Source: Primula veris
Taxonomy: Eukaryota; Streptophyta; Magnoliopsida; Ericales; Primulaceae
Assembly: GCA_963682055.1 (NCBI GenBank)
Contig: OY821745.1
Location: 12,221,501-12,285,500, forward strand
Direction of reading: 5' to 3'
DNA length: 64,000 bases
A program made the position numbers and the translations under genes. Shown piece after piece: positions 11,561 to 58,760 of this stretch (the stretch's first letter is position 1; every line of letters starts with the position of its first letter). The notes under the pieces were generated by a model that did not search any database, was not told the origin of the DNA, and was given only the letters and a program-made list of their open reading frames with translations.

Positions 11561-11569
11561 TACTAAATT

Positions 11570-20696: not shown

Positions 20697-20697
20697 C

Positions 20698-26997: not shown

Positions 26998-27109
26998 CCC
27001 TCAGTGAAAATTCATTTTCACTTTCTCAATCTCTCTCTAAAATTTTCACAGCACAACCATTCTCTCTCTCTCTTCATACTTAGGAGATTTCACCAACCAA
27101 CCAACCATC

Positions 27110-30628: not shown

Positions 30629-30716
30629 CTTTATAACAACAGTTTTCATTTATGAAGCCCACAGGCATAAATTTACATCACATTCTTATTTACACAAAAG
30701 TCATAAAGGCCGAGCT

Positions 30717-36466: not shown

Positions 36467-36471
36467 ATATG

Positions 36472-37644: not shown

Positions 37645-38175
37645 GTATCTAATTTCTCAAACATATATTTTTTTTAAAATTTGATGATTATGGTATAAAA
37701 AGTGACATGTATTAGAAAACAAAATTTTCCTCCCGTCCCTAAACAAATGTCACATACGAAAATAAATACAATTTTGACCGATAATTTTTTTATATTTAGA
37801 TTACCGAAAAAAATTATTTCAAAAGTTAATCACGTCGTTTATGGTTATAACTATATGATGAAATTTTCAATTTTTTCATTTCGGTAATTTTGATATGAAA
37901 ATTTTGATGGTCAAAGTTGCATGTATTTTCGTACATGATATTTGTTTAGGGACGGAGGGAGTATAATAATAATAAACTATCATGTGTTCCACATTTTTAT
38001 GGTTGTAATATTGTTATGATTATTAAAAGATAATAAAAAAAATATAGTGTTATTATAAGAAAATTAATAAAAAAAAATGGAATTTTGTGTAAATGTAAAC
38101 AGTTCCTTAAAATGTATAAAATGTGTTAGGTTTGAGAAAATGTTTGAATTAGCTGGTGCGGATGCTCTTAGTTCA
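37645..38175. mobile_element. second copy of the Tourist-like MITE, with a Stowaway nested in it
   Basis: The left part (tctcaaacatatatttttttt ... gtgacatgtattag) and right part (aactatcatgtgttccacat ... gcggatgctc) match the element at 14203-14547. The Stowaway at 37729-37961 splits them. Confidence 0.5.
37729..37961. mobile_element. Stowaway-type MITE
   Basis: The left end CCTCCCGTCCCTAAACAAAT and right end ATTTGTTTAGGGACGGAGGG are nearly perfect inverted repeats over about 20 bp, continuing into acatacgaaaat / attttcgtacat. TA follows on the right. The subfamily differs from the ccgttcc copies. Confidence 0.85.
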
Positions 38176-41669: not shown

Positions 41670-41674
41670 ATGCG

Positions 41675-42226
41675 TGATAAAGCCATAACTTTGGTCGGTA
41701 GCGTTAGGCTTTTCAACTATAATATATAATGAATTGACAATAAACGATGAACACTTGTTGATCTTTATTATTATTCGGCAATTGCCATTGCTCGGACTAC
41801 AATTCTATCACGGTATTTATGCTCGGATTCGTTGCTCGATCCGGAACGTGATCTTTCTCTTCTCTTTGGTGCTCGGTTCTCGATCTTACTCGGTTTGGCT
41901 ATTGATGTGATACGTTCTGATAAGTTTTATCTTTTCTCTCATTCTCTCTATATTTTTTAGATATGTTTTCTGGTCCATTTCTTAGGGGGGATATTTGGCT
42001 ATTTATAGGCAATTATGCCTCCTAGGATGTTGACAAATGTCTCCATCTCATGGGATTTTTCAGACATGGGTCCCTATTTAAGTGGGCTTGGGCTTTTAGT
42101 AATATCCACTCTTATTCTTTATGAAAGGCATGTGACGACCCATTTAAGCATTGGATACCCATCTATGAAGTGTGGGTTGATTGTTACCCGAATAGAATAT
42201 TCGGGTCTAATTTTTATGTTCTATCA
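41675..42226 (-). repeat. 3' LTR of gypsy element 3
   Basis: TGATAAAGCC...TTCTATCA with ATGCG outside. Minus-strand TATA (TATAAATA) at 42000-42007. It pairs with 58045-58596. Confidence 0.95.
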
Positions 42227-42240
42227 AGTGCTCCCTGACT
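42227..42240 (-). other. PPT-like primer site of element 3
   Basis: On the minus strand GTCAGGGAGCACT directly precedes the LTR start TGATAG. It shares CAGGGAGC with elements 1 and 2. Confidence 0.55.
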
Positions 42241-42436
42241 TCCTCGGCGTGGTCTCCTCGTCGAGAGAGTCATGATCGGTCTGTCGAGGATATTGCTTCG
42301 GCCCTGTTCCCAAGATTACATCAAGAGATGCGGTGGATTCAAGACTGTTCCCGGGGGCCCATTTGAGGTCATTAAGAAGTCCTATCTTGGTATCTTTTTT
42401 CGAGGAAAACCATTGATCTTCCCAACATTTATCTAC

Positions 42437-42443
42437 TATAAAG
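42437..42443 (+). promoter_or_regulatory. TATA box of antisense gene a
   Basis: TATAAAG in ctactataaaggtgcc, 50 bases upstream of ATG 42493, a normal plant spacing for a short leader. Confidence 0.6.
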
Positions 42444-42492
42444 GTGCCCCATCCCCCATTATCCCATTTACTATTACTTCGACCGTGACACA

Positions 42493-42804
42493 ATGGCTTC
42501 TCCCCATGGTTTGACAGTAAACAACTCGTCAGATTACGTTGCTCACTTGGAGAATGAGGTCAAGAAGGTTCGCGTCATGAAAAAGAAATTGGCGGACGTG
42601 ACCAAAATGTTGTCTGATATGGACGCGGCTCATCACTTGACGATGACCGACCTGAATTGGGCCTTTGAGCGTATAAAGAGGCTCGAGGCTTCCCTGGCTA
42701 AGGAAAATACAGCAAAAAGGGCCTATAAGCTTGCTTTTAAAGAACTGCATGATCGGTCCAAGCTGGGGTCGGATGATGATGAAGCAGGCTCTTCCTCGGG
42801 ATAA
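42493..42804 (+). CDS. antisense gene a of element 3: small coiled-coil protein
   Basis: 103 codons from ATG to TAA, intact. Starts MASPHGLTVN. The body is helical with heptad-like hydrophobics (YVAHLENEVKKVRVMKKKL, IKRLEASLAKENTAKRAYKL) and ends in an acidic, Ser-rich tail (GSDDDEAGSSSG). An AATAAA follows at 42879. It is a paralogue of gene b: both have MASP, YVAHLE-EV-K-R, RIK-LEAS and KRAYKL in the same order. No enzymatic motif was recognised; an oligomerising or scaffold role is only a guess. Confidence 0.72.
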   Translation: MASPHGLTVNNSSDYVAHLENEVKKVRVMKKKLADVTKMLSDMDAAHHLTMTDLNWAFERIKRLEASLAKENTAKRAYKLAFKELHDRSKLGSDDDEAGSSSG

Positions 42805-43045
42805 TTAATTTTTGTAGTTTTCTTTTCTTTCTTTTCTATTGGGTTTTATCACAAAGTTGTAACTGAATTATTGAAATTAATAAAATAACCCCTTGTTCTC
42901 ATTCTTGTTTGCGTACCTTCCCAATACTTATTGAATGATGTGATTTGGACTTGAATTGTGGCTAATTGGGCATTAAATGTCTTTGAGAAGCTCGAGGGTT
43001 TGTCTATCTTCAAGATGACCTCTGATCTTCCCCGTTACTTCGTCC

Positions 43046-43052
43046 TATAAAA
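43046..43052 (+). promoter_or_regulatory. TATA box of antisense gene b
   Basis: TATAAAA in gtcctataaaaggag, 51 bases before ATG 43097. This spacing argues for ATG 43097 over the in-frame ATG at 43064, which lies before the expected transcription start. Confidence 0.65.
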
Positions 43053-43096
43053 GGAGACTGTACATGTCCTTTTGTATAACTCACCTAACGAATCAA

Positions 43097-43435
43097 ATGG
43101 CTTCTCCTCGTGAAAATAGTGGCGACAATCTTCCTGAATATGTTGCCCATCTAGAGGAGGAGGTTAGGAAAGCTCGTATCCTCGAAAGGAGGGTTGCCTC
43201 TTTAACAATGGAGGCTCGTCGAGCTGCTGATATGGACGAGCGCTTGGAGGCCATGGAGAGTGAATATCAGAGGTCTCTGATCGACAATATTTGGGCTCGT
43301 GCTCGGATCAAAGAGCTTGAGGCCTCTAGAGATAGGCATATTGCTTCCAAGAGGGCTTACAAACTGGTCCTTCAGGAAGTGTTTGCTCGGTCTAAGAGGA
43401 AGCCGAATGACGGAGCATGCCCTTCTACGAAATGA
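43097..43435 (+). CDS. antisense gene b of element 3: small coiled-coil protein
   Basis: 112 codons, intact. Start chosen at 43097 because it gives MASPREN, matching gene a, and because of the TATA position. Coiled-coil body (YVAHLEEEVRKARILERRV, then RARIKELEASRDRHIASKRA) and a short basic and polar tail (RSKRKPNDG). AATAAA at 43504-43509. Tandem paralogue of gene a, about 600 bp apart. Confidence 0.72.
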   Translation: MASPRENSGDNLPEYVAHLEEEVRKARILERRVASLTMEARRAADMDERLEAMESEYQRSLIDNIWARARIKELEASRDRHIASKRAYKLVLQEVFARSKRKPNDGACPSTK

Positions 43436-43909
43436 TTTTTTATTATTTTTGTTGTATTTCCTTTATGTTGACTGCCTCTTCTGTAATGAAGTATCCATCA
43501 ATCAATAAAGACTTCTTTTTCTTGTTTATATCTGAATTATTCTCCCAATGCAATTAATTCTGATTGCGCATGCTTGTGGCTCCATTAATGATTTTTCTTG
43601 GGCCTTGTGCTTGACCTTATCCACTGAATCTTCTGAATCTTTGTATATGGGAACTAATGGGATTTCTTGAGCCCTGTGCACAAATCTTATCCTCTAAATC
43701 TTGGCACTGTTGCACTTCCCTATTTGAATGCTGGCGTAACTGACACGTGTAGAGGCTTTTTAGAGATTTACCTTTTTTAAATACTGGTCTGAACCCAAGC
43801 GTTTCTTGTCAACAGACGCACCTTTTCAATTTCCCATGTTTTCCAGCATCTTTTGACGAACGGTTGCAATTCCCCATATTAATCCTTCCTTAATTTCTCT
43901 ATAAATACC

Positions 43910-43917
43910 TGCTTAAG
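43910..43917 (+). promoter_or_regulatory. TATA box of antisense gene c
   Basis: TATAAATA in tttctctataaatacctg, 82 bases before ATG 43992. Confidence 0.62.
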
Positions 43918-43991
43918 ATATGGATTTCTTCACAATCTCCCCCTTATCTCTCTTCATTATATACAGAATTTTATCTTATAACCTCCTAAAA

Positions 43992-44281
43992 ATGGAAGAA
44001 CAACGAAATCCGCATTGGTTCTGCAAGTGGAGGCTTTTGAAGCCTCATATAGCCATGCTCTAGGGCTGTTGAAGGATGCTGAAGAGGAGTTAAAGGTGAT
44101 GCGTTATCACCATACCGAGATGGTTCGGGAATTGACTTGGCTAAGGTCCGAGCTGGATTATTGCCGACGTGCTCGTCAAGCTCTAGTCGAAGAGAATGAG
44201 GTGTTGAGGGGGAATCCGACATTTAGAGATAGGGATATCTCCGCCGGGCCCTCTCATCGATACCGATCGACTTCCCCCTAG
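43992..44281 (+). pseudogene. antisense gene c of element 3: small coiled-coil protein, frameshifted
   Basis: ATG 43992 opens a frame that stops at about 44062, while the long coiled-coil reading (VEAFEASYSHALGLLKDAEE, LTWLRSELDYCRRARQALVE, tail HRYRSTSP) is in another frame from about 44015 to the TAG at 44279-44281. One indel near 44010 explains both. The position and size match the other small genes of the array. Not clearly homologous to a or b at sequence level. Confidence 0.6.
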
Positions 44282-44282
44282 C

Positions 44283-44665
44283 CTCCCCTTTTCTCTTTTC
44301 TTTCTATTTCTTTTTTTCAATTTTCTTCATTTCTTCATCTTTTCTTTTTCTTCTGTGCATCCTCTTTCTTTTTCTTCATCTTCTCTCTCATCACTCTTTT
44401 CTTCTTTCTTTTCTTGCACTCTTCTTCTTTTCTGTTTAATACTTTGTTCTGTTCTTTTTCTTTTTTCCTTTTTCTCTTCTTCTGCACCACTACGATGTAA
44501 CAATCAACCCTGTGATCCTAAGGGTTTTTTGTTACTTCTAGGGTTTTTGTCATTTTTCATTTTTATCTTCTTGCTTTTCATTTCTTTTTTATGTTCCTCT
44601 TTATCTTTTTCTTCCTCTTCCCCATCGCCTCTCTTTTCGTTATTTCCTTCCTCTTCTTAGCTAGT
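44283..44665 (+). repeat. CT-rich low-complexity tract after gene c
   Basis: Nearly 400 bases of mixed ttctttttc / cttcatctt / ctcttcc on the plus strand. Apparent ORFs rich in Ser, Phe and Leu inside it are composition artefacts. It is probably 3' UTR or intergenic spacer. Confidence 0.7.
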
Positions 44666-45022
44666 TCTGCTGATATAGTCGATCTTCTTTGGCTATGTTG
44701 TCTCCAGTCATAATAGATATATTTTTATTTTTTTTTGTTGCCCTCTGATGTAACAGACCTCTATGTAATAGATTTTCTTTCGATGTTATCTTCGGATGTA
44801 ATAGACCTCAAATGTAGTAGACTTTCTTTTGATGTAATGGACCGTGTTGTATCCCATCTTTATTAATGAGAAGTATCTTTGTCCCTTTATATTGCACTTC
44901 TTTTTATGTTGCACTTGTGGTTTGTCGTTTTTCTGGAATCTGGATCTTTGAACATCTCGTCTTTATTTCCTGCCGAACTGTGATATCAGATGACTGTAGA
45001 CCTATCCCCAGCATTGTCAATC

Positions 45023-45145
45023 ATAGGTGCATGCTCCCAAGCATGGTTGAATAATGTGCATGTTCCCAAGTAATGTCAGGAAATATGCATGCTCCCAAGT
45101 ATGTCAAGAAATATGCATGTTCCCAAGGATTGTCAGACAATATCA
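45023..45145 (+). repeat. four imperfect repeats in the promoter region of gene d
   Basis: The phrase tgcatgctcccaag (or tgcatgttcccaag), plus tatgtcaagaaata-like spacer, occurs four times, ending about 15 bases before the TATA box. The core atgctcccaa also occurs 3' of the antisense genes in elements 1 and 2 (near 18930 as tgtgctcccaa, and 29910 as catgctcccaa). Confidence 0.6.
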
Positions 45146-45159
45146 CATTATCTTTGCTC

Positions 45160-45167
45160 TATAAATA
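45160..45167 (+). promoter_or_regulatory. TATA box of antisense gene d
   Basis: TATAAATA in gctctataaatactcaacc, 99 bases before ATG 45259. Confidence 0.65.
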
Positions 45168-45258
45168 CTCAACCTTTCTTCAGAACATATCTTTTTTCAT
45201 ACTGTGTTTGCTTCTCTTTCATCTCTCATCTCCTTCTGTATAAAAATAACTTTTCCTA

Positions 45259-45738
45259 ATGTCTAAGCCCGTGGTGCGATATCATGCTCAGATGAAGAAC
45301 TTGGACGCTGAGGTATCTCGGGTCCGTCATAGAATGGCTAAGCTTGAGAAGGAGTACAGTGTCCTGGCTCTGAGTTTGTACAACTCACACCCCGAGGAGA
45401 CAATTAAATGGACCGAGATCTCGGCCTTGGGTCGTGAACTTGACCACCTATTGGTGCGTAGGAACACTCTGGCCGACTCCTGGTATGAAGCCGAGGAGAT
45501 TTGGGATCATGCTCAGAATGAGTTTGATAACTGCCCTCAAGGCCTCGGTAGTATGGCTGTTAAAAATGCTCGGCTTAAAGAACAAGTTACTGCCCTTATT
45601 GGGGAGAATGCATACCATGCCTGGGAGAATGAATGCTTGGTCGTCTTGAACGACTCATTTAAAGCTCGGCTAGCTACCTCTGCTCGGGAGATTGCTTCTC
45701 GTTCTGCCAGTTTTGTTGTCCCGCCCTCTGATCCTTGA
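45259..45738 (+). CDS. antisense gene d of element 3: helical protein, 159 aa
   Basis: Intact from ATG to TGA. Starts MSKPVVRYHAQMKNLDAEVS. Predominantly helical, with charged heptad stretches (RVRHRMAKLEKEYSVLAL, ISALGRELDHLLVRRNTLAD, NARLKEQVTALIGENAYHAW) and a Pro/Ser end (FVVPPSDP). No known domain recognised. Plant-like leader and own TATA box suggest an independent transcript. Confidence 0.7.
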   Translation: MSKPVVRYHAQMKNLDAEVSRVRHRMAKLEKEYSVLALSLYNSHPEETIKWTEISALGRELDHLLVRRNTLADSWYEAEEIWDHAQNEFDNCPQGLGSMAVKNARLKEQVTALIGENAYHAWENECLVVLNDSFKARLATSAREIASRSASFVVPPSDP

Positions 45739-45880
45739 TTAGATTAGTCTATTTTTTTGATGTATTTTCCGTTTTGGAACTTGTATTTGAACAGTTGTAT
45801 CTTTTCGTATTTCGTGCCTTTGTCTTGTGAAACGTTGCAACGCCTCGTACTTTGAGCCTTTTTGTAACCTTGAATTTCTT

Positions 45881-45888
45881 TATAAATG
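45881..45888 (+). promoter_or_regulatory. TATA box of antisense gene e
   Basis: TATAAATG in tttctttataaatgctccc, 84 bases before ATG 45965, followed by a CT-rich leader (tctcattttctctctcttgt). Confidence 0.58.
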
Positions 45889-45964
45889 CTCCCTATTGCC
45901 TGTATTTCATTATCCAATCTCATTTTCTCTCTCTTGTTTCTTCTAACTTGCTTTTTTTTTTGAG

Positions 45965-46327
45965 ATGGCTCCCATCACTAGATCTGCCTCCAAAAAGAAA
46001 GCCCTTCTGGAAGAGGAGCCTACCTTCTTGCTATCCCGTCCCCCTGATTTTGGGGAAGAGGATTTAACTCCTCTTCAGTTAAAAGAAATTGAGATGTCGT
46101 GGCTGAAGCATGATCTTAAGTGTGCTCAGACTGAGATGAGGCGGTTCAAGCAGTATTGGCAGGAGGAGAGCGCTGCCCGTTTTGAAGCCGAGCAGAAGTG
46201 CAAGTCTCAATCTTATGCTCTTAAACAAGTGGAGATTGGCATTTCTCATTTGATTAGGGAAAAAGAGCGTCTGGAGGAGCTCTTGGCGAAGAAGGATGTC
46301 GACATGGGGGGTAGTTCGAAGAAGTAG
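45965..46327 (+). CDS. antisense gene e of element 3: small coiled-coil protein, 120 aa
   Basis: Intact. Starts MAPITRSASKKKALLEEEPT, a basic N-terminus, then a coiled coil (LKEIEMSWLKHDLKCAQTEM, EKERLEELLAKKDVD) with tail GGSSKK. AATAAA at 46402-46407. It is the last of the five short genes before the large gene f. No database family recognised. Confidence 0.7.
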   Translation: MAPITRSASKKKALLEEEPTFLLSRPPDFGEEDLTPLQLKEIEMSWLKHDLKCAQTEMRRFKQYWQEESAARFEAEQKCKSQSYALKQVEIGISHLIREKERLEELLAKKDVDMGGSSKK

Positions 46328-47095
46328 GATGTGCAGTATTTCTTGTAAACTTTTCTTTTCCTGTTGTTTTGTTTGTTTGTTTGTATCCCCCGCTGTGGAT
46401 GAATAAAACTTCTGCTTTGCAACTTGATCCTGTCTATTTTATTTTGTATCTGCCTTGCCTTTATATTGATGGTATTGCCTTGCCTTTATATTGATGTCTC
46501 TCAAATACCGGACACCGAGCATGGTACCACGAGGTACACCATGGTTATCCCCCCGGAGAGCGTTGGTAGACTGGACGCTGAAATGCCGCCGAGCTAAGAA
46601 TGGTCTCCGTCCACCTTGTTCGGTGGGCCATTTGTTCGGGTAAGAAATGGTGGGGTGTCGAGGAACTTAATTGGGGGACTTTCTCGGTGTGGCAATAGTG
46701 GTAGCGTATGTTGGAAGATTTTTGTGGTAGGGTCCATGAGCCGTTTATTTAGGTGTAATGATATGAACTGGCTTGGGTAGTGGGATATACTTTCTGACGT
46801 GGCAAGATCTGGAGCCTTAATTTGCTGACATAGTAGCAGTTGGGGACTTTTCTGTGGTTGGAAAAAAGGTGAACCTCTGTCACACGAAAAGGCGGTTATT
46901 ATTTTATTCTTTTTGTAGTTCCACTCCTTTTAACTGTGCGAAATAATCCCTTTAGCTTTTTACCTCATAATTTGCTGAAAAAAGATCTCTTATCTTCTCT
47001 CTCTAGGATTTGTTCTTCCCGCCAAAAATTTGCTGCCTCTCTATCTAGGGTTTGTCGAGAGATTTGCTGCTGCTTTCCCTTTCGTGTTCTCGAAT
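46328..47095 (+). other. spacer and leader before antisense gene f
   Basis: Contains the polyadenylation region of gene e, a short duplicated phrase (ttgccttgcctttatattga, twice near 46450-46495), GC-richer DNA, and near 46980-47090 a pyrimidine-rich leader-like stretch (tcttatcttctctctctagg, tctctatctagggtttg). No convincing TATA box was identified for gene f. Confidence 0.45.
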
Positions 47096-49692
47096 ATGAC
47101 TGTAAGTGTTTTCGAAATATCTATAGGTGATAAATTGTTGTGGTCATGTATGTGGCGTTGATATGTGGTCGTGTTTGCCTATATATGTTTAGTTAGGAGG
47201 TTGATTGGTAGTGTGCCTTCATGTATAGGATTTTTGTTGCATCGGAAAACTTTTGGGTGTCTGGTAATTGGGGGGGGGGGGGGGGTCTCATCGTGTGATT
47301 TGTATGTGGTTAGTATACTGATTGAAATTTTGATGTGGTTAGTATACTGATTGAAATTGTGATGATGTTTGGATAGGAAATTCTGACCCAATGCCTGGCC
47401 CAAGTTGGCTCATTTGTGGAAGAGGACTTTAAGAAGCTCGCCGGGATACCCGCCGACATACATATTCGGCTGCCTGTCTCTGATGAGGAGGTAATGGGAT
47501 TTTTTGCTGCCGGCGAAGTAGCCATACGTTCCTCGGCATTTTTTACTGGGGGTCTTAGACTTCCGTTCACTGCGTGGACAGCGTCGTTCTTCGAGGCCAT
47601 CCAGATCGCTCCGGCCCAACTAGCCCTGAATGGTTACCGTACCCTGAACGGTATTCAAAGTTTGTCGGAGTTGGCCGGGATACCTATCGAACTGAAGGAT
47701 GTGTTCGGGGTCTACAGTTTGAGTTTTCAGTGACGCAACTCTTATTTGAAGACTTTGCGCTCCTTTTCCCGGCTTGTCATCGGTTTGCCGGACACGAACA
47801 AGGAGCATAACCTTGGTGTTGTGATTGCTTCCGGAGAGTGGGGTTGCACCGGACACCAGATTCCTGGACCTGCTACCGCGGCTCCCAATATTCCAGACCT
47901 CGGCGCTCCCAACGTGGAAGCTCTAGTGGCTCTTTGGAATTGGTGGGGGCCTGGACCGACGAAGGATCCGGCGAGCCGTTCTGCTCCTATGTTGTTAGGT
48001 TACCCTACGGGGCCAGTGACAAAGGGGAATCCTGCGCCCGAGATCCCCAAAGTGCCCGAGGAGGAATTCATAAAAGTTGTCAGGTCTCGAAGTGCTGCTC
48101 GGGGAGGGAAAAAGCCCGTTCATTCTAAGCGCCGAGCATCTGATCCTGTTACCGGGACAACGAAGAGGGCTAGGGGGACAGAGACATCGGTCACCGAGGA
48201 GGTTGCTGATGTTGGCACGGGTGTGGGGGTGTTGGCTTCTTCCCAAGGTGATACCACCGAGGATGCTTCTACCCATGCCTGTGTACGTGTTTTTAATTGT
48301 CATCCTGTTTCAGCTATTGACGTCTTCGTCACTTTAATTCTCGTTTGTGTTGTCTTTTAATTCCCTTTTTCGTTGCCTTAATTGTCATCCTGTTTCAGCT
48401 ACTGACTTCTTCTTTGGTTACCCTTGCTCTTGCCCGGTCTATGGGTATTATTGTGTTTCAGGGGTCGTTCGACAACATATTCGGACATATCAACCTCCTG
48501 GTGAACATGGGCGAGGATACGATGACCGTGCCGGTCCTTTCGCCTATCCGTACCGAGGACCCAATAGACCTACCGGTATGCTCGCCCATCCGTACTGAGG
48601 AGGCGAGCGAGCATAGGGCCCCTGAGACTGGTCCTTCGGAGAAGGATGTGAGGGCGGAAGTGGAGGTGGAATCCGGCAAAGAGAGTGCCGTGGATGTTGT
48701 GGTGGGTGGAGAGGATGAGGTTCTCGAGGGACCTGAAAAGGTATTGGTGGACGGGGTTGCAATGACCCGTTACATCGATCGGTGTAGGGGTGAGCTGTTG
48801 GAGCAGCCCCGAGTCTTGAGGATGGGGTATACTGCTCTTAAGCCCCTCATCGTCAAGGATGCAGAGAAAATAGCTGCTCGGCCTGTAATGTCGGTTATAG
48901 AGCAGGCCAGCACTGATGCGCTTCGGGTATGTTGCGCACGTATTTTGTTAGATAAGTCGTGATGCTCTTGTTTTGGCTGGTGTCTGATGTTTCTAAATAC
49001 AGGTCTTCGTGGATATCGTGGTGTTAAGGGATCAGCTATCAGTACTAGAGGCTGAGAAGGAGAAGCTGATGGCCGAAAATAAAGCCTTGACCGAGGATAA
49101 AGCTCAGCAAGTGAAGTTGGTCTCCGAGCTAGAGGCGGAGAAAGAGAAGCTGATGGTCGAAAGCAAAACAACGGCCGAGGAAAAAGCCCAGATGGCGAAG
49201 TTGGCCTCAGATTATGATAAATTGGTGGGAGACAACTTACGCCTGACCGAGGAAATCGAGAAGTTGGGGGCTGAGAAAGAGCATTTGGTCGAAAAATACG
49301 ACCTGCTGGAGGCCGATAACTTGCTCATGGCGGAGGATGTGGAGGCCGGAACATCAGAGGTTGCTGCTCTGAAGGCAGAGCAAGCAGATGAACGGAAAAA
49401 GTTTGCAATGATGGCCAATTTTTCCGTCTTTTGCGCTCATGTCCGAGCTCTAAACTTTGCGAAGGTACCACTGTCAGACCGGGCGTGGTCGGAATTGGTG
49501 TATCCCTGTCCGTAAGGTGCCCCTCCTAAGCCTCTAGATTGGGCCAATCTTCGGGATGAGGAGCTCCCACGGCTACCGGGGCAGACTACATCGACGGCGC
49601 TTCGTCCCCATCCCGGGTCGGTTCCCTCGACTCCACGGTCTACTGCTGCTGCTGTTACTCCCCCACCCGCATCTCCTCAGGTGGAGCCTTGA
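47096..49692 (+). pseudogene. antisense gene f of element 3: relative of the element 1/2 antisense gene
   Basis: Exons 47096-47101 (ATG plus one codon), 47377-48282, 48462-48926 and 49003-49692. All introns are GT-AG and phase 0, lengths divide by three, total 688 codons. Two in-frame stops: TGA at 47731 and TAA at 49513. Exon 2 has the PF04195-like block (LRLPFTAWTASFFEAIQIAP, then QLALNGYRTLNGIQSLSELA) and a VIASGEW ... LWNWWGPGP segment, aligning with LPIPELLAEL ... NWWGPDGTD of elements 1 and 2. Exon 4 is a long coiled coil (LEAEKEKLMAENKALTEDKA, repeated with variation) and a Pro-rich tail. Same strand, position and domain order as in the other elements, so it is an ancestral component. 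Function unknown. Confidence 0.8.
47270..47285 (+). repeat. run of 16 G in intron 1 of gene f
   Basis: Homopolymer of 16 G, followed within 60 bases by a tandem duplication of gtatactgattgaaatt(g/t)tgatg. Length may be a sequencing uncertainty. Confidence 0.8.
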
Positions 49693-49871
49693 CCATTTTC
49701 GTGCGGTATTTTCTATGTAGCTTAGCGTAAAATCTTTTGGTACCCGTATTGTGGGTCTCTTTTGTAACTAGACAGATTCTTTTGGGAAGTGATAATATAG
49801 GTGCTGCATTTTCTTTCTGTTTGGCTCTCCTGGTTAGTTTCCTTGTTTGTGGGGGTTTGTCTTTTGAAGGG

Positions 49872-49878
49872 TATAAAA
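49872..49878 (+). promoter_or_regulatory. TATA box of antisense gene g
   Basis: TATAAAA in agggtataaaaacaaaatc, 43 bases before ATG 49915. Confidence 0.55.
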
Positions 49879-49914
49879 ACAAAATCTTGTCAGGTACCTG
49901 TCAACCCCATTGCC

Positions 49915-50487
49915 ATGGTGGTCTGTACCTCGCCTAGTCATAGCGTAGGCGATGTTATAGATGGTCTTGCGAGATCTAAGGCGTCCCTAACTGCCGAATT
50001 GAATTCTGCGCGTCATGAAATCGAGGGGCTGAACGTTCATATTTCAAACTTGTCGATTCGATTACGGGACTTGGGAGATAAATTCAGCAAGAAGACCACA
50101 TATTATACAGCAAACAAAGGGAAAGCAAAAAAGCTTCTGGGTGCACTTTGGCGTTCTCGTGATGAAGCCCGAGGCTGTGTGACGAGCTTGAACTTGGTAC
50201 TAGGGGCCGTTTTCGAAGACGCGGACCTGCTACTATCCTTCGCCAAAGCGTATTGGGCCCGAGTCCGTGCTTTAGAGGTGCTTGAGCATGTAAAAGGGAT
50301 GCGTGGTGTTGCCCGGGCTGAACGCATGGTTGACGCAATGGCCGGGGTAACAGAGACCACGGCTGCCTTGAACCGAATTGATGCGGTCGTGCAGGAACGT
50401 TTGGGGACGCAAATCGCCTCACTGCGAGATATTCATTTCGTTGATGTCGTAGAGACCTCAGCGTCTGTCGATGGGTTATCGGACTAA
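49915..50487 (+). CDS. antisense gene g of element 3: helical protein, 190 aa
   Basis: Intact from ATG 49915 to TAA. The frame is open further upstream to 49801, but the TATA box at 49872 favours this start. Starts MVVCTSPSHSVGDVIDGLAR. The helical central part (SLTAELNSARHEIEGLNVHI, MRGVARAERMVDAMAGVTET) ends ETSASVDGLSD. No recognised domain. If the stretch before 49915 were coding it could instead be an exon following an acceptor (tcttgtcag). Confidence 0.65.
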   Translation: MVVCTSPSHSVGDVIDGLARSKASLTAELNSARHEIEGLNVHISNLSIRLRDLGDKFSKKTTYYTANKGKAKKLLGALWRSRDEARGCVTSLNLVLGAVFEDADLLLSFAKAYWARVRALEVLEHVKGMRGVARAERMVDAMAGVTETTAALNRIDAVVQERLGTQIASLRDIHFVDVVETSASVDGLSD

Positions 50488-50526
50488 AGATTGAGTAGCT
50501 TGTTTTGTCGCTTTTCTTGTAGCTTG

Positions 50527-50534
50527 TATAAAAA
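50527..50534 (+). promoter_or_regulatory. TATA-like box before antisense gene h
   Basis: TATAAAAA, 186 bases before ATG 50713. A T-rich tract and a possible acceptor (ttttttatag|gcgcatg at about 50605) lie between, so the gene may have an upstream exon. Confidence 0.4.
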
Positions 50535-50712
50535 TATTCGGTTTTTTTTTCTTACCGATGAATATTCATATCTGCCCTTTCTTCCTCGTTTTTCTTTTTT
50601 ATAGGCGCATGTTACTACGTCGCACCAGGCTGGTTCTCCATGCCTAGTTAGTCCGGGGTTAGGACCTACTGGGGCTGCCCGGGACGAGGTCTCATCTGGT
50701 GCGGCTAGTGAA

Positions 50713-51249
50713 ATGCACGCCAAATGGCCTTACATCGTTTTAATGGGCAAATACGTCGAACTGCGTGATCAGTATGCCCGACTTAGGTCCAAGTTGAAAG
50801 CCCAAGCGTTTTCTTTTCGGGAATATGTTCGTCATGCCGAGCATGTTGTTGAGGTTCAGGAGCGTCGTTTAGATCGATATTGGCGTGTAATGGAAAAATA
50901 ACTCGGTAAACTGAAATCGTTAGTTACCCAAGCCAATATGTTGGTGAATTATTTCCGTCTGTCCCGGTTCAGATACGATACTTCTGCGGCTATGATCAAA
51001 GCTCGTAAGCTTCACTTCGACGATGCTCGCCGTAAAGCGGCCTCGGACGTTCACGAGATCGCTAGAGAAGCCGAGTTCTCCGCGCGGCTTAAGACACTGA
51101 GATGCGTTGGTGCTCATACGACCAACTTTGATGCCCTCATTTCTGAGGAGCGTTTTGATGGCGAGGAGACCGATGGGGATACGGCGACGGATGACGAAGA
51201 AGTCAAGCTCGGTCAATTGCCGTCGTGCTCCTCCTGTAGTGGTTCTTAA
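50713..51249 (+). pseudogene. antisense gene h of element 3: helical protein, one nonsense codon
   Basis: One frame of 178 codons from ATG 50713 to TAA 51249, with an internal TAA at 50899-50901 (likely CAA to TAA). The frame is also open upstream to a splice-acceptor-like site near 50605. Helical and basic (YVELRDQYARLRSKLKAQAF, ARRKAASDVHEIAREAEFSA) with an acidic tail (GEETDGDTATDDEEVK) and a Ser/Cys-rich end. It is the last gene before the tandem array. Confidence 0.6.
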
Positions 51250-51526
51250 ATCCATTTCTTTATTACTGGTTGTATCTTGTTGCCTCCGTAATGCGGGCGA
51301 GAACTATTTGCTTTATTCTTTTATTCATGCGTTGGATTGTTTTATTGTCATGTTGTTTCCTTTGATGAGATTGTTGTTCCTTTGTTTTCTGTGCTGGGTA
51401 TTTGATCGGCTTTGTTTTATTGTCGCGTTGCTAGTTCCTTTGATTCTTTTATTTCCTGCATTATTTTTCTAGTTTCTTTTCTGCCTTCGATCCTTGCTCA
51501 TTGGATCAGTTGTTACCTGCATATAT

Positions 51527-51907
51527 TTGAGTATTCCTAGGCATTTTTTTAGACATGCCATGTTGGAAATTTCATAGTATTACTAGGCACAAAGGCCGTT
51601 TGGGAATTTCACAGTATTCCTAGGCACAAAGGCCGTTTGGGAATTTCACAGTATTCCTAGGCACAAAGGCCGTTTGGGAATTTCACAGTATTCCTAGGCA
51701 CAATGGCCGTTTGGGAATTTCATAGTATTCCTAGGCACGTCTGCCGTTTGGGAATTTTATAGTATTCCTAGGCACATAGGCCGTTTGGGAATTTCATAGT
51801 ATTCCTAAGCACATAGGTCGTTTGGGAATTTCATAGTATTCCTAGGCACATAGGCCGTTTGGGAATTTCATAGTATTCCTAGGCACATAGGCCGTTTGGG
51901 AATTTCA
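51527..51907. repeat. tandem array in element 3, about ten units of 37 bp
   Basis: Unit ggccgtttgggaatttcata plus gtattcctaggcacata, exact 37-bp period from about 51590, with one or two degenerate units first. It sits between the last antisense gene and the integrase end, the same place as the 78-bp arrays of elements 1 and 2, but with unrelated sequence. Confidence 0.95.
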
Positions 51908-52012
51908 GCTGCACTCGTTAGACAGCATGATAAGATAATTTATTTATTCAAAAGACAATGTCATTAAGCAAGAGAGGTAAGGTGGCACCTGTATTTGTAC
52001 TGGCGAGAGGGC

Positions 52013-53937
52013 CTAGATGTAATACTTATTTAGGTTAGCCACATTCCAAGAATTTTTCTCCCCTCTGCTATTTTTTAAAAGAACGCTTTTGAGTTTGTAG
52101 GTAACCGGGCTTGTTCTTTTGACGATCTCGTACGGTCCTTCCCAGGTGGGGCTCAATTTTCCATGTATTTCATTGCGGGTATAGACCGTTACACGTCGTA
52201 GCACCAGTTCTCCTATCATGAATTCTTTGGACCCTTTTACTCTCTTGTCATAAGTTTGCTTTACGCTTTGTTGGTATTTCGCTAGGGTAAGGGATGCTAT
52301 CTCTCGTTTCTCGTCTAGCATGTCGAGTTCTTCTCTCATTCTTTGTTCATTGTCTCCCTGCTCGACTAAGGTCGTTCGTAGTGTGGGTAGCCCGATTTCC
52401 GTTGGTATGACGGCCTCGACGCCGTATGCTAAGTTGAACGGGGTTTCCTTGGTGCCCGTCTTCGGTGTAGTTCGGCATGACCATAAGACGTTGAGTAGCC
52501 GCTCGGGCCATCTCCCCTTTGCTTGTTCGAGGGTTGTCTTGATGCCGTCTAGTATTGTTCAGTTTGACACTTCGGCTTGTCCGTTACCCTGCGGGTATGT
52601 CGGCGTCGAGTAGAATTTACGGATACCTAGTTCTTCATACCAGAGCTGTAGATTAGCATCTTTGAACTGGGTTCCGTTGTCAACGACAATAGCGTACGGT
52701 ATACCAAACCTGGTGATGATGTATTCCCAGATGAATTGTTTGACGTTGCTGTCTTTGATTTCTCGGAGGGGTTTAGCTTCGACCCATTTGGTAAAATAAT
52801 CCGTCGCGATGATCAGATATTCCACACTGCCAGGCGCTTTTGGGAGTTTACCGACCAAATCAATTGCCCATTGTGCAAACGGCCACGGAGCCGATACTGG
52901 GGACATCAGAGACGATGTGAGCCGTGGTATTTTGGCAAATCGTTGGCACTTGTCGCAACTTTGGACATATACATCGGTGTCTCGCTTGATATAGGGCCAC
53001 CAATATCCTTGTGTGATAGCTTTGTTGGCAAGGGATCGCCCTTTGATGTGTGCTCCTCAAGATCCTTCGTGGATTTCCTCCAATACTGGCAGTTGCAGCT
53101 CGGGCCGGATGCACAGTAGGTGGAGTCCTCGGTAACTGGATTTGTACAGTTTATCGTCCTCGGATAGCCAGAACCAAGGTGCTTTTCTCGTAATTTTCAA
53201 AGCCTTTATCTTGTCCGTCGGAAGCGAACCGTCTCGTAGATAGCGACTCATGTCATCCATCCATCCTAGCTCGTACTGGATTGACGTTACTCGGTCTATT
53301 CTTCTGGTGATACTTGTGGCTTCCAGAAGTTCTACTACGATCGACCGAGTGTCAGTTAATGTTAATGTCGAGGCTAGGGTTGCCAAGGCGTCGGCATGGG
53401 CATTTTCGGTGCGATTGATTCTTATTAATTCGCACTGTTCGAAAGTGGCCATCAAGCTTTGGACTTTCTCTTGGTAGAGAATCATTCTGTCATCTTTTGC
53501 TTGGTTTCGCCGATGGCTTGATTTACGATCAGCATGGAGTCCGAACTCGCAATTAAGTAGGAGCATCCTAGCGATCGGGCAATGAGCATGCCGTTTATCA
53601 TGGCTTCGTATTCCGCCTCATTGTTGGTAGCTCGGAAGCCCAGTTTGATGCTTTTCTCTATGATGGCTCCTTCGCTAGACTTGAGGACGATCCCTGCTCC
53701 CGAGCCGTCCTTGGTGGCCGATCCATCGACATGTATTTGCCAGTGTGATTGTGGGGATATAGCTAACGGCTCGTCATACCCTTCAGTGAATTCGGAAATG
53801 AAATCGGCCAAGACTTGTCCTTTTATGGCATGTCGGGGTGCGAATTCGATATGAAATTGGGATAGTTCGACCCCCCATACGGCCACTCGGCCACTGATGT
53901 CCGTCCGTCGAAGTGACTCCTTGATATGAAATTTTGT
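52013..53937 (-). pseudogene. element 3 RNase H and integrase, broken
   Basis: Continuation of pol. RNase H (WQIHVDGSATKDGSG, LGFRATNNEAEYEAMINGML) at about 53886-53482; spacer with NRTENAHADALATLAST; integrase zinc region around 53060-52930; core (WAIDLVGKLP, VVDNGTQFKDA, NGQAEVSN) at about 52906-52559; C-terminal tail (LSPTWEGPYEIVKRT) to the stop at 52013. At least one frameshift (near 53500) and in-frame stops near 53935, 53055 and 52557 break it. Its 3' end faces the 37-bp array and the antisense genes. Confidence 0.9.
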
Positions 53938-56310
53938 TTATACTCGGACCTGGTGAGCTATGAAATAGTGCGGCAATTTCCTGGTAGCAACTACCAATGC
54001 CAAGCATAGCTTTTCCAATGGCAGGTATCGGGTTTCGGCTTCAACCAGAGTTTTGCTAACAAAATAGATCGGAAATTGTTCGCGACCTTCTTCTCTTAGG
54101 ATGACTGTGCTCACAGCTGTAGTAGAAACTGCTAGGTAGCATGCCAGGATATCTCCTTTATTCGGCCTTACTAGCAGTGGCACCATCCTTAAATATTCTT
54201 TGAGGCTGTTAAATGAAGCTTCACATTTCGGGTCCCACGCGAATTTTCTATCCTTCTTGAGTGATTCAAAAAATGGCCGTCCCTTGTCTGCGGATCGGCT
54301 GATGAACCTGCTCAGTGCGGCCATCATTCCCGTGAGCTCTTGCACCTGCTTCTTATTCTTGGGTGCTGCCAGGTTCTGGAGAGCTGTGATCTGATCGGGA
54401 TTAGCTTCTATTCCTCGTCGGCTGACCATATGCCCCAAAAATTTTCCTTTGCTAATGCCGAATGCACACTTGCTCGCGTTGAGCTTCAGCTTGTGCTTGC
54501 CCAATGTTTGGAAGACTTCCCTAATGTCTTGGAGATGGGATATGGCCTTTTCAATTTTGACGACCATGTCGTCGATGTATACCTCCATGGTCTTTCCTAT
54601 ATGCTCTCTGCATACCTTCGTTATCATCCTTTGGTATGTTGCTCCCGCGTTTCGTAAACCGAACGGCATTACCGTATAGCAATAGTTTCCCAAAGGCGAT
54701 ATAAATGACGTCTTTTCTTGATCCTCGTGGGCGAGGGGGATTTGGTGGTACCCTGAGTATGCGTCAAGGAAGGTCACCCGTTCTGCTCCCGCTGTGGCAT
54801 CCACCAGTTGATCAATCCTTGGAAGGGGAAAATGGTCCCTCGAGCAGGCTTTGTTAAGATTGGTGAAGTCTATACAGACTCTCTCCTTTCCGTTCTTCTT
54901 AGGAACGACGACCGGATTGGATAACCACTTTGGATAGAAAACCTCCCTTATGGCTCCGGCTTCCAATACCTTTTGGACTTCAGCAATTATAGCCGCTCTG
55001 TGCTGGACAGATACTTTTCTGCTCCTCTGAGCTACTGGCTTGTATTCGGCGTTAACGCTGAGGTGGTGACACACCGTATTAGGGTCTAGGCCTGGCATGT
55101 CTTTGGGACTCCAGGTGAACTTTTCGATGTTGTTGAAGAGGAACGCTTCTAAATCTTCGGATTCCTCTTTAGGAAGGTTATCGCCGATGAGGAAGTAATG
55201 CTCCTCGTCCGTATCCGGAATATACACCTTCCTAAGCTTCTTTCCTACTTGCTCTTCAACAACCCTTTCGGTTTTGGCTATTTGGTTGATTAGCTTTTTC
55301 GTGCTGGTGGGTTGTTCAACAACGACCAGCTGCTTTTTGAGAGCCGCGGTTATGTCTTCGCAGTGTTTGGAATCCTCTTGGCATCCTCTGGCTGTCTCGA
55401 TCTCTCCACTACCATTTGGGTATTTCACCTTTTGGTGGTAGGTCGACGGTATAGCTCTCATGGCATGCAGCCATGGTCGGCCCAAGATGGCATTGTGGCC
55501 GGAGCTGTCATTGACCACTAAGAACTCCACGGGAACTGACACGGATCCGGTGGTAACACTAAGGACGATCTTTCCCAACAGTCTAGTCGTCTCGGATATG
55601 AACCTGATCAGTGTGACGTCAGTCGGCTGTAAGTCTTGGGGCTTGAGCTCCATCTTGTCGAAGAGCTCTTTGTATATGATATCACAAGAGGCTCCTTGGT
55701 CGACAAGCACCCTGCTGACCGTGTCAAGGCCGATTTGAACGCAGAGGTTAATGGCATCCCCATGGGGGTATATCACCCCTTCTTCGTCGAGGTCTGAGAA
55801 AGAAATGGGCGGATGTCGTCTTGGTGTGCATTGCCTTTTAGAAGTCGACGCCTGTGATGCCTTGGCTACTTGGCCAAAATGCGCCAATTGTCGTTGTCTT
55901 GATCGCTCCCCACCCATGCCCTTAGGTCGTGACATATAAACAACGTTGATTGTTTTGCCTTGCCGATTGTTGGCCCCCTCAATGGCCAGTTGTTTGCCTT
56001 TATTCCCAGCGCCTTTGATGAACTTGGTTAAGTAGCCCGCGTCGCCCCACAAGTTCATTTTCCATCGCAGGTTACGACAATGCTCGGTGAGATGGCCGTG
56101 ATCTGCATGATATGAGCAGAAAAGCTTTGAATCTCTCATGTTGGGGAGAAAAGCGATCGGTTGTGGTCGGGAATACCAACTTTCCCTGCATATATCCTTA
56201 AGGATATCTTCAGCAGACCGGTTGAAAGTGTATCTCAGCTCGACCGGTTCGAAGGTGTTTCGGCGCTCCCTCTCTTGGAACCGACCTTGTTGAAGCGGCT
56301 TGGGGGGCAT
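53938..56310 (-). pseudogene. element 3 Gag zinc knuckle, protease and reverse transcriptase
   Basis: 790-codon open frame, the longest intact piece of this pol. It starts after a stop that separates it from gag. Contains the knuckle CSYHADHGHLTEHC (C-x2-H-x4-H-x4-C), protease VLVDQGASCDII, and reverse transcriptase (VCIDFTNLNKA, FLDAYSGYHQIPL, YIDDMVVK at about 54560-54582). In-frame continuity with the gag piece at 56760-56389 shows they were one polyprotein. Closely related to element 2, but clearly a different family. Confidence 0.93.
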
Positions 56311-56388
56311 TAGGTAGGTGAGCTGGAGTGGTTTATGTTCGTTGATCGGTGTTGGGTATGCGATCTGGAGCGGTTTAGGCTCAGGCTC

Positions 56389-57146
56389 TCATTGTCGCTC
56401 TACCCTCCTCGGGACCTCGGAACCTTTGTCCTTTCTGGTCGGGTTGAATGCTTCTCCCTGGTTGTTCCTGGCTCTTTTGCGTCCCACTTGTGCTTCCCTG
56501 ACCGATTCTCTCCTTGGTAGAGTTCGGTTGAGAAGCCGCAATTCATCATTTTTGTCGGTGAGGTGGGTACAGTAGGCTAGCAGGGAGTCGGTGGTCGGGA
56601 AGCTTTTGCCTATGAACTTCCTTCTCGCCCAATAGCCATTAGGGATGGAATTGATAAAGTTTTGGATGGCTATATTATTGGCGTACTGCGGGATCTGGTT
56701 AGCTACGTCGATAAAATGTATGCAGTAGTCGTTGAGCCTTTCATTCGGCTGCATCGTCATTTTTAGAAGGGTTTCGATGCTAACCTTCTTCTTCCGATGA
56801 GCAGCGTATCAGGTGGAGTACGCTCTTAATAGCTCTGTCCAGTTTCTTATGGACCCTCGTGGTAAGTTGTGATACCACGACGAAGCCTCTTGGCCCAAGC
56901 TGTTTTTGAAAAACTTGCACATCAGTGCATTGTCGTCACTCCATAGCTCCATCTTCGTCTTGTAGTGTCGCATATGGTCAATCGGGCAGCTCCTTCCATC
57001 ATAGAGCCTAAACTCGGGGATGACGAACCCCAGAGGATTGCGGTACCGCGTGATTTGCTCGGTACATGGGGTTTCTTGGCATACGTCCCAAGCCTGTTGG
57101 AACGCTTCATCAGGGGCTTGGTAGAGGGGGGGGGGGGGTATCCCCC
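56389..57146 (-). pseudogene. element 3 gag, capsid part, interrupted
   Basis: Minus-strand reading with capsid-like motifs (YDGRSCPIDHMRHYKTKMEL, WYHNLPRGSI, then IHFIDVANQIPQYANNIAIQ). In-frame stops near 56811 and 56387. A run of 13 G (57126-57138) marks the frameshift that separates it from the upstream gag ORF. Ends with basic NC-like sequence (GRKRARNNQGE). Confidence 0.8.
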
Positions 57147-57965
57147 CTAATGCGGTTGTGGGTAGTACCCTACCACGACCCTGTGTTCGGGGTATCTTCC
57201 GTCCTTCGGGTTCATATCGGGGGCATGTTCCGTATGAGTGTTTGGGTGGACGAATGTTGGAGGGATCGTTATTGGGACATTGCCCCCTTGGTGGGGGATT
57301 CTTTTATCTGGTCGCCGGCCTGCCGCTTCCATAGCGGCCCTAAAGGCGGAATCTTCCACGTCATGGCGTGGGTCCTTATCATTATTGGCAGGTTGGATAC
57401 TCAGCAATGTGATGCCGGCTGCTGCCATGGCCGACAGACACGCTGCCAAATGAGCCTGCAGCTGGGCGTTGTTCCTTTCTTCGGCTAATGGAACAACGTG
57501 TTGTACTTCCACCGTGGATGGTGTAATTATCCTCGGTGGGAGAATAGGTGGTCGGGTCAATTGTTCGAGTACGGGATCATCGGGCATGCCAAACCGGTAA
57601 GCTTCATTCGTTGGTAAATGAGGCTGGTGGGAACTGGAGTTGACCGAGGCTGTTGGCAGGGAAACTTTAGAGCTCGGTCCTGCCTGGGGTCCGGGTAATT
57701 GTCTTCTTGCGCGTCTTAATACGGGCAAGTCTCGTTCGTCGTCCGAGGACGTAGGATGTTCTTCGACGAGTCCTTCGAGCTGTTGGGGTTGCTCATTCGG
57801 TTGTTCTTGGTGAATATTGGAGGTTGTTGGTTGGTTTCCGGACTGGATAACATCATATCTGTCGCGGATGGCAAGTAGATCGTTGAGGTCTTGTTGGCTA
57901 ATTTGCACGTTCTGGTTATTGGTTTCTACTATCTCGGGATGGGTTTCTTCTATATTGGTTACCAT
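57147..57965 (-). CDS. element 3 gag N-terminal ORF, 272 aa
   Basis: ATG at 57965, only about 58 bases inside the primer-binding site, as expected for the first ORF. Gln/Pro-rich, low complexity (QPTTSNIHQEQPNEQPQQLE), followed by AHLAACLSAMAAAGITLLSI. Ends at TAG 57147 just before the C-run frameshift, so the ORF is probably a truncated part of gag. The function of this N-terminal extension is unknown. Confidence 0.75.
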   Translation of the reverse strand: MVTNIEETHPEIVETNNQNVQISQQDLNDLLAIRDRYDVIQSGNQPTTSNIHQEQPNEQPQQLEGLVEEHPTSSDDERDLPVLRRARRQLPGPQAGPSSKVSLPTASVNSSSHQPHLPTNEAYRFGMPDDPVLEQLTRPPILPPRIITPSTVEVQHVVPLAEERNNAQLQAHLAACLSAMAAAGITLLSIQPANNDKDPRHDVEDSAFRAAMEAAGRRPDKRIPHQGGNVPITIPPTFVHPNTHTEHAPDMNPKDGRYPEHRVVVGYYPQPH

Positions 57966-58024
57966 TGTTGCTCGTCTAGTAGAGTCTTGGTATTCGACTT
58001 AGAAACTAGTTGGGAACTAGATGT

Positions 58025-58042
58025 TTCCCGGAGACGGCGCCA
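58025..58042 (-). other. primer-binding site of element 3, tRNA-Asp type
   Basis: On the minus strand TGGCGCCGTCTCCGGG starts two bases after the 5' LTR. The 3' end of plant Asp tRNA (…CCCCGGCAACGGCGCCA) pairs with it over the first nine bases and the CCGGG block, a known primer choice in Tat and Athila elements. Confidence 0.75.
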
Positions 58043-58044
58043 TT

Positions 58045-58596
58045 TGATAAAGCCATAACTTTGGTCGGTAGCGTTAGGCTTTTCAACAATAATATATAAT
58101 GAATTGACAATAAACGATGAACACTTGTTGATCTTTATTATTATTCGGCAATTGTCATTGCTCGGACTACAATTCTATCACGGTATTTATGCTCGGATTC
58201 GTTGCTCGATCCGAAACGTGATCTTTCTCTTCTCTTTGGTGCTCGGTTCTCGATCTTGCTCGGTTTGGCTATTGATGTGATACGTTCTGATAAGTTTTTA
58301 TCTTTTCTCTCCTTCTCTTTATATTTTTTAGATATGTTTTCTGGTCCCTTTCTTAGGGGGATATTTGGCTATTTATAGGCAATTATGCCTCCTAGGATGT
58401 TGACAAATGTCTCCATCTCATGAGATTTTTCAGACATGGGTCCCTATTTAAGTGGGCTTGGGCTTTTAGTAATATTCACGCTTATTATTTATGAAAGGCA
58501 TGTGACGACCCATTTAAGCATTGGATACCCATCTATGAAGTGTGGGTTGATTGTTAACCGAATAGAATATTCGGGTCTAATTTTTATGTTCTATCA
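58045..58596 (-). repeat. 5' LTR of gypsy element 3
   Basis: 552 bp, TGATAAAGCC...TTCTATCA, ATGCG outside. Minus-strand TATA (TATAAATA) at 58370-58377. About 12 substitutions and 2 single-base indels relative to 41675-42226 by eye. Confidence 0.95.
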
Positions 58597-58760
58597 ATGC
58601 GTGTGATGATAAACTCACATCTTATTTTAGTGCATATTATACGTATATTATAGTACTAAAATTCTATTCGGGTCTAATTTTTATGTTTTATCAATGCGTG
58701 TGATGATAAACTCACATCTTATTTTAGTGCATATTATACATATATTATAGTACTAAAATT
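58569..58760. repeat. 97-bp tandem duplication spanning the LTR end and flank
   Basis: Units start at 58569 and 58666 (attcgggtctaatttttatg...). Each contains the last 28 bases of the LTR, the ATGCG site and 60-odd bases of flank up to actaaaatt. It therefore arose after the element inserted. Confidence 0.9.

What the first reader, a model, noticed from the sequence alone, without database searches (positions are those of the whole stretch)
42227..51250. Array of up to eight antisense, separately promoted, mostly coiled-coil genes inside one gypsy retrotransposon
Seen directly: between the 3' LTR and the integrase end of element 3, eight plus-strand units (42493, 43097, 43992, 45259, 45965, 47096, 49915, 50713) lie opposite to gag-pol. 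Six have a TATA box 43-99 bases before the ATG, a seventh has a more distant one, and several have AATAAA behind. Units a and b are tandem paralogues. Most units encode helical, heptad-rich proteins. Known: some Tat elements (Retand, Grande) carry one or two antisense ORFs. Inference: a multi-gene antisense cassette of about 9 kb, retained next to a decayed pol, suggests a function for the element, or a cassette amplified by it.
Basis: partly seen in the sequence, partly recalled or inferred. Interest (0 to 1): 0.9.

Follow-up and report, generated by a model that had tools for sequence, protein, structure and literature searches.

The report
Retrotransposon carrying conserved antisense gene array
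A plant jumping gene carries, on the strand opposite to its own replication genes, a conserved set of about six extra genes for mostly small helical proteins, more than is usually described for its kind.

Summary
Element 3 is one LTR-gypsy insertion (41675-58596, TSD ATGCG) on the minus strand. Between integrase and the 3' LTR lie 9.8 kb with plus-strand genes. I read 16 cassettes in this genome (this one and 15 fetched). Frames b, c, d, e are present in 16 of 16, a in 15, g in 15, f5 in 15 (some copies broken). Pooled pN/pS is 0.22-0.48 in every coding piece (13 copies), against 0.97-2.06 in the other forward frames and 0.47-1.20 in spacers. Exact TATAAA precedes a-e in 63 of 65 cases. Correction: g and h are probably not separately promoted genes. 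g's TATA is kept in 3 of 12 copies, and in 3 of 3 copies read from a large subfamily g has no start codon while its frame stays open from a conserved acceptor-like site. Likely anatomy: five small single-exon genes plus one intron-bearing TRP28-like gene with alternative 3' exons. Antisense ORFs are the rule in Retand elements, so this is an enlarged new variant. Protein function is inferred, not shown.

The parts
41670..41674 (.). target site duplication ATGCG
   Evidence: same 5 bases at 58597-58601
41675..42226 (-). 3' LTR of element 3
   Evidence: pair with 58045-58596, TGATA...TATCA ends
42493..42804 (+). unit a, 103 aa; TATAAA at 42437, AATAAA at 42879
   Evidence: present in 15 of 16 cassettes; pN/pS 0.30
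43097..43435 (+). unit b, 112 aa, paralogue of a; TATAAA at 43046, AATAAA at 43504
   Evidence: 16 of 16; pN/pS 0.22; relative P0004, 75% over full length
43992..44281 (+). unit c; frame 44015-44281 conserved, frame shifted just after the ATG in this copy; TATAAA at 43900
   Evidence: 16 of 16; pN/pS 0.28; start region aligned
45259..45738 (+). unit d, 159 aa, predicted three long helices; TATAAA at 45160
   Evidence: 16 of 16, one partial; pN/pS 0.32; relatives P0001, P0002; at least 150 matches in the genome
45965..46327 (+). unit e, 120 aa, basic N-terminus; TATAAA at 45881, AATAAA at 46402
   Evidence: 16 of 16; pN/pS 0.25
47096..49692 (+). unit f, TRP28-like gene with introns: ATGACT|GT, exon pieces f2 47377-47730, f3 47746-48279, f4 48465-48926, f5 49009-49680; broken by TGA 47731 and TAA 49513 in this copy
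   Evidence: sub-cut-off PF04195 match; splice-site-like borders; pN/pS 0.24-0.48
49678..49682 (+). CAG|GT at the end of f5, phase 0, donor-like (followed by a conserved in-frame stop)
   Evidence: 15 of 15 copies with this end
   Evidence: 15 of 16; acceptor 15 of 15; ATG absent in 3 of 3 copies read from a large subfamily; pN/pS 0.27; relative P0003, 85%
50605..51249 (+). unit h, probably a second, alternative 3' exon of f; acceptor-like TAG ends at 50604; broken by TAA 50899 in this copy
   Evidence: h1 in 14 of 16; pN/pS 0.34 and 0.35 for its two pieces; the first 108 bases are not clearly constrained (0.78)
51489..51969 (.). 37-bp tandem repeats between the cassette and the integrase end
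52013..57965 (-). gag-pol region in interrupted pieces; RT about 54427-54906, integrase core 52562-52906
   Evidence: Pfam matches, ORF list
58045..58596 (-). 5' LTR of element 3
58597..58601 (.). target site duplication ATGCG

Best explanation
An accessory-gene region of a Tat/Retand-type gypsy retrotransposon family, encoded antisense to gag-pol. Shown: the frames are kept in order and orientation in many copies and evolve under purifying selection, so they encoded proteins useful to the element while it was moving. Five small single-exon genes (a-e) have conserved TATA boxes and so are probably transcribed one by one. The TRP28-like gene f has introns; g and h are most likely in-phase alternative 3' exons that give it different helical C-termini (inferred from conserved splice-site-like sequence, phase, and loss of g's start codon). 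Inferred mechanism: antisense promoters make helical accessory proteins independently of the LTR promoter; these oligomerise with each other or with the f product, probably in the nucleus, and help the element's DNA or chromatin step (nuclear entry, integration or relief of silencing). My odds: 0.85 for protein-coding genes serving the element, 0.65 for the f-g-h splice model, 0.25 for the nuclear step.
For: Presence in 13-16 of 16 cassettes for each piece, same order; pN/pS 0.22-0.48 in frame against 0.97-2.06 in the other forward frames; starts and stops aligned; TATAAA before a-e in 63 of 65; AATAAA after a, b, e; full-length relatives of b, d, g; donor-like and acceptor-like sites in 15 of 15, both phase 0, and g without ATG in 3 of 3 copies of one subfamily. 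The nuclear step leans only on the published nuclear location of the Grande product (PMC7264820) and on the TRP28 DNA-binding prediction (PMC11963269).
Against: No transcript or protein was seen. f5 has a conserved stop 12 bases after CAG, so CAG GT may be plain coding sequence. The first part of h is not clearly constrained (0.78). From the acceptor-like site h is open to its end in 6 of 11 listed copies. d has no exact TATAAA in the two subfamily copies where its start is present. PF04195 stays below its cut-off. No helical unit has a recognisable fold relative. Some copies of nearly every unit are broken. Accessory frames are less constrained than pol (0.15).
Confidence: 0.8

Rival explanations
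1. The plus-strand transcription matters as antisense RNA (dsRNA, siRNA or interference with the genomic RNA), and the ORFs are incidental.
For: The genes are antisense to the genomic RNA; the review PMC7264820 (part 2) raises this possibility. No protein was seen.
Against: Frame-specific constraint in every unit and conserved starts and stops are not expected of incidental ORFs. An RNA role in addition is not excluded.
Confidence: 0.05
2. f, g and h are three separate genes, as the first reader listed them.
For: f and g both end in conserved stops; g has an ATG in 12 of the 15 copies that have it; a TATA-like box precedes h in most of the nine aligned copies.
Against: g's TATA is kept in 3 of 12; the ATG is lost in 3 of 3 copies read from a large subfamily while 197 codons stay open from the acceptor-like site; h's listed ATG is private to this copy.
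Confidence: 0.25
3. The units are captured host genes carried along passively, or a host-domesticated function.
For: Several unrelated small genes side by side look like a collection.
Against: The same set in the same order in deeply diverged copies (d down to 68-72% identity) with constraint throughout; no host family recognised by Pfam. A genome search for single-copy host relatives was not possible, since only the 150 best matches were scored.
Confidence: 0.07
4. Chance ORFs in AT-rich spacer DNA.
For: Three of eight units are broken in this copy, and 80-100 aa ORFs are not rare by chance.
Against: ORF excess and constraint tests.
Confidence: 0.01

Closest known systems
Retand lineage elements (Vicient 2025, Mob DNA 16:15, PMC11963269; text parts 1-3 of 5 read; term search)
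   Same: Long pol-3'LTR region with antisense ORFs, usually including a TRP28 ORF, and tandem repeats next to pol.
   Different: 9.8 kb here against 2.9-6.6 kb there; internal region 15.8 kb against 7.4-12.9 kb; five further short antisense genes with TATA boxes. That survey drew ORFs under 600 bp only if they held TRP28, and took 10 kb on each side of RT, so it would miss this element (inference).
Maize Grande gene23 (as told in PMC7264820, parts 1-2 of 3 read; the original paper was not seen)
   Same: An antisense accessory gene between pol and the 3' LTR with a promoter of its own; its product is nuclear.
   Different: One gene there; about six transcription units here. No sequence comparison was made.
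Elements 1 and 2 of the same window (14497-21821, 25913-36469)
   Same: Tat/Retand-like elements with an antisense ORF that aligns with f at 26.7-32.5%.
   Different: No match to a-e, g or h by tblastn at E 0.01.
Antisense genes of retroviruses such as HTLV-1 HBZ (as told in PMC11963269), and anti-silencing proteins of VANDAL DNA transposons (recalled)
   Same: Works like: an element-encoded regulator made apart from the main transcript.
   Different: Analogy only; no sequence relation was tested or is claimed.

Membership tests
Retand lineage (Ty3/gypsy) | RT groups with Retand in a tree | not tested
   RT, RNase H and integrase found by Pfam; no reference set on hand
Retand lineage (Ty3/gypsy) | Long region between pol and 3' LTR | tested here: met
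   9,786 bp; longer than the published range of 2,933-6,566
Retand lineage (Ty3/gypsy) | Antisense coding regions between pol and 3' LTR | tested here: met
Retand lineage (Ty3/gypsy) | TRP28 domain (PF04195) in an antisense ORF | tested here: inconclusive
   12.7-22.9 bits in four copies, cut-off 26.2; no match at E 0.001 in L046 f2-f3
Retand lineage (Ty3/gypsy) | 5-bp target duplication and two LTRs | tested here: met
   ATGCG; LTRs of 552 bp
[quoted passage not shown]
   37-bp repeats at 51489-51969
Antisense accessory genes of the Grande gene23 type | Transcribed from own promoter | not testable with these tools
   Conserved TATA boxes only
Antisense accessory genes of the Grande gene23 type | Coding constraint, as for other element proteins | tested here: met
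   pooled pN/pS 0.22-0.48; pol 0.15, so weaker than pol
Antisense accessory genes of the Grande gene23 type | Nuclear product | not testable with these tools
   no experiment possible

The most novel reading that the evidence does not exclude
A plant LTR retrotransposon family with an accessory genome like that of complex retroviruses: five promoter-bearing small helical genes plus a TRP28-like gene whose in-phase alternative 3' exons (g or h) give isoforms, all antisense to gag-pol, kept by selection across deep subfamilies and exchanged between them by recombination.
Probability: 0.55. Interest if true: 0.75.

Novelty: new variant of a known kind. Interest (0 to 1): 0.62.

Why it matters
Antisense genes are a hallmark of Retand elements, yet their function is unknown, and the survey I read counted mainly ORFs of 600 bp or more. 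A family with at least five further short, selected frames with conserved TATA boxes suggests that this accessory region has been under-read. With shared, lost, duplicated and exchanged units in one genome it also offers a comparative system for asking what these proteins do for a retrotransposon.

Tried and rejected
Scans of viral contigs with g and with P0001 found no relative. Pfam gave no family over its cut-off for any antisense unit. Foldseek of the d model against PDB listed 591 matches with E up to 10, none at E 0.001 or better, mostly generic helical hairpins; the g model is poor (pLDDT 64) and was not searched. Paralogy among the units was rejected except for a/b. A promoter of its own for g was rejected as a family feature. 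I first took the public relatives P0001-P0004 for other species; with more copies read they are 88.7-96.1% identical to copies in this genome, so they may come from this plant or a near relative. The plant was not identified. Paper searches were answered; searches failed, 7 was a term error and 99 met the cap; reading two further papers failed. That no such array is in print therefore rests on two answered searches and two papers read in part, and is not claimed.
Full report
WHAT THE WINDOW HOLDS. Element 3 is a single insertion on the minus strand: 3' LTR 41675-42226, 5' LTR 58045-58596, 5-bp duplication ATGCG on both outer sides. The LTRs differ by 12 substitutions in 552 aligned columns (K2P 0.022; about 0.8-1.7 million years at rates that I recall). 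gag-pol lies at 57965-52013 in interrupted pieces with RT, RNase H and integrase matches. From the integrase end to the 3' LTR there are 9,786 bp. The cassette lies at the same place in the sister copies read, so it belonged to the element before this insertion.

ARE THE ANTISENSE FRAMES REAL? In the window the plus strand has 9 ATG ORFs of at least 100 aa, the minus strand 2, and 300 dinucleotide shuffles average 0.67, maximum 7. TATAAA stands 43-99 bases before six of eight proposed starts; 2000 shuffles reached at most two. Sister copies decide the matter. A genome search with d gave 150 scored matches of 1422 first-look candidates, so a lower bound; by my count 116 of the 150 have no stop inside. 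g also gave 150 scored matches of 1388. I read 15 further cassettes: 8 from across the d list, 4 from its low end, and 3 from the g list.

CONSERVATION. Order and orientation agree in the cassettes read. Of 16 cassettes, window included (in brackets: one unbroken stretch of at least 90% without a stop): a 15 (11), b 16 (14), c 16 (13), d 16 (15), e 16 (11), f2 14 (12), f3 13 (12), f4 14 (11), f5 15 (12), g 15 (12), h1 14 (11), h2 13 (13). L052 lacks a; L039 has lost f2-f4; L049 keeps only a-e within the fetched stretch; L048 ends before h and L046 within it. The window's c and h count as unbroken in these pieces although c is shifted after its ATG and h is stopped between its two pieces. L034 has an extra a-like frame. 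Pol fetched for six copies is antisense to the cassette in 6 of 6.

SELECTION. Pooled pN/pS over 13 copies: a 0.30, b 0.22, c 0.28, d 0.32, e 0.25, f2 0.24, f3 0.30, f4 0.48, f5 0.32, g 0.27, h1 0.34, h2 0.35 (L052-L054 not included). In nine copies the two other forward frames of a-e, f2, f3, f5, g and h give 0.97-2.06, and ten spacer or intron stretches give 0.47-1.20 in any frame. f4 was set in a wrong frame in that control (its true frame gives 0.40). One antisense frame gives 0.31-0.46, in each of these units more than the sense frame; its third positions coincide with those of the sense frame. Pairs with dS above 0.3 have unit medians of 0.14-0.42. Pol pieces of the window and six copies give 0.15 pooled and a median of 0.11: the accessory frames are constrained, but less than pol. 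Choosing copies by their match to d favours intact d, less so the other units. c, d and e in 30 loci (window included) give 0.31, 0.35 and 0.22.

PROMOTERS AND ENDS. Exact TATAAA lies 27-110 nt upstream of a-e in 63 of 65 cases in 13 copies; random windows of these cassettes have it in 7%. In L052-L054 it is found before b, c and e in 3 of 3, but not before d in L052 and L054, where d's start is present. AATAAA follows a in 13 of 13, b in 9, e in 11 (two of these only 4 bases after the stop position), c and d in none; random rate 13%. For g TATAAA occurs in 3 of 12.

ONE SPLICED GENE RATHER THAN THREE. f begins ATGACT|GTAAGT in 7 of 8 aligned copies that have it (ATA in L034), and its further borders are GT/AG-like in most of them (L032 lacks one acceptor). 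At its end CAG|GT is kept in 15 of 15 copies that have that end, and CAG|GTACC before g in 15 of 15; both are phase 0. In L052-L054 g has no ATG before residue 136 counted from the acceptor, yet 197 codons are open; by my count about 60 of the 150 g matches begin at residue 2, and I read three of them. From an acceptor-like TAG the h frame has no stop before the MGK start in 10 of 11 listed copies; the eleventh, L046, has no ATG there. Beyond it h is open to the end (214-215 codons) in 6 of 11. The stretch 50605-50712 is not clearly constrained (0.78), while the 21 bases before g's ATG look coding (0.31, very short). I infer that g and h are in-phase alternative 3' exons of f. The conserved stop at the end of f allows a shorter product too, and means that CAG GT could be ordinary codons.

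WHAT THE PROTEINS ARE. No Pfam family over its cut-off for any antisense unit. f carries a weak PF04195 match, 12.7-22.9 bits in four copies against a cut-off of 26.2, and aligns at 26.7-32.5% with the antisense ORF of element 2. a-e, g and h match nothing in elements 1 and 2 at E 0.01. The d model is three long helices (pLDDT 75) without a significant PDB match. a and b are paralogues; profiles relate no other pair. A public protein set holds full-length relatives of d (71 and 68%), g (85%) and b (75%); they are 88.7-96.1% identical to fetched copies of this genome, so they confirm the frames but not spread to other plants.

RECOMBINATION. The window copy is 93-99% identical to L032 in every gene segment but f5 (89%), and 88% in the LTR; its LTR and f5 are closest to L035 (96%), which is 74% identical around a. 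Copies look like mosaics, as expected from template switching between co-packaged RNAs (inference).

RELATION TO WHAT IS KNOWN. Vicient 2025 (PMC11963269; and a term search) reports antisense coding regions in all recently active Retand clusters, TRP28 in 97% of them, and a pol-3'LTR region of 2.9-6.6 kb. ORFs under 600 bp were drawn only if they held TRP28, and 10 kb on each side of RT were taken. Here RT is at about 54427-54906 and the 3' LTR lies more than 12 kb away, so such elements would escape that survey (inference). Vicient and Casacuberta 2020 (PMC7264820) review antisense genes such as that of Grande, whose product is nuclear. By architecture this is a Retand-type element; RT phylogeny was not tested and the TRP28 test is inconclusive. 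So: a new variant of a known kind, with unusually many accessory frames.

Noticed in passing
window 25913-36469: Element 2: LTRs 99.7% identical, one 1695-aa gag-pol frame, an antisense ORF like f, and nine 78-bp tandem repeats at 29848-30771.
   Followed up: partly
window 14497-21821: Element 1: related to element 2, LTRs 98% identical, only 7.3 kb, with gag and most of pol missing next to the 5' LTR.
   Followed up: no
window 58568-58760: The end of the 5' LTR with its target duplication and flank is duplicated in tandem (two 96-nt copies, 98% identical).
   Followed up: no
window 59574-59875: Tandem repeat of about 52 nt beside element 3.
   Followed up: no
window 11141-13473, 22391-22631, 37729-37964: Several related short inverted-repeat stretches, like miniature DNA transposons.
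   Followed up: no
L034 1057-1386 on the cassette strand: A third a/b-like frame (54.5% to a, 35% to b): copy number of this gene differs between elements.
   Followed up: partly
L039: A copy that lost the TRP28 part of f but kept a-e, g and h.
   Followed up: partly
L001 1501-1656: The only stretch reported for PF04195 in the genome, 29.2 bits, over the cut-off, on another chromosome (150 of 990 candidates scored).
   Followed up: no
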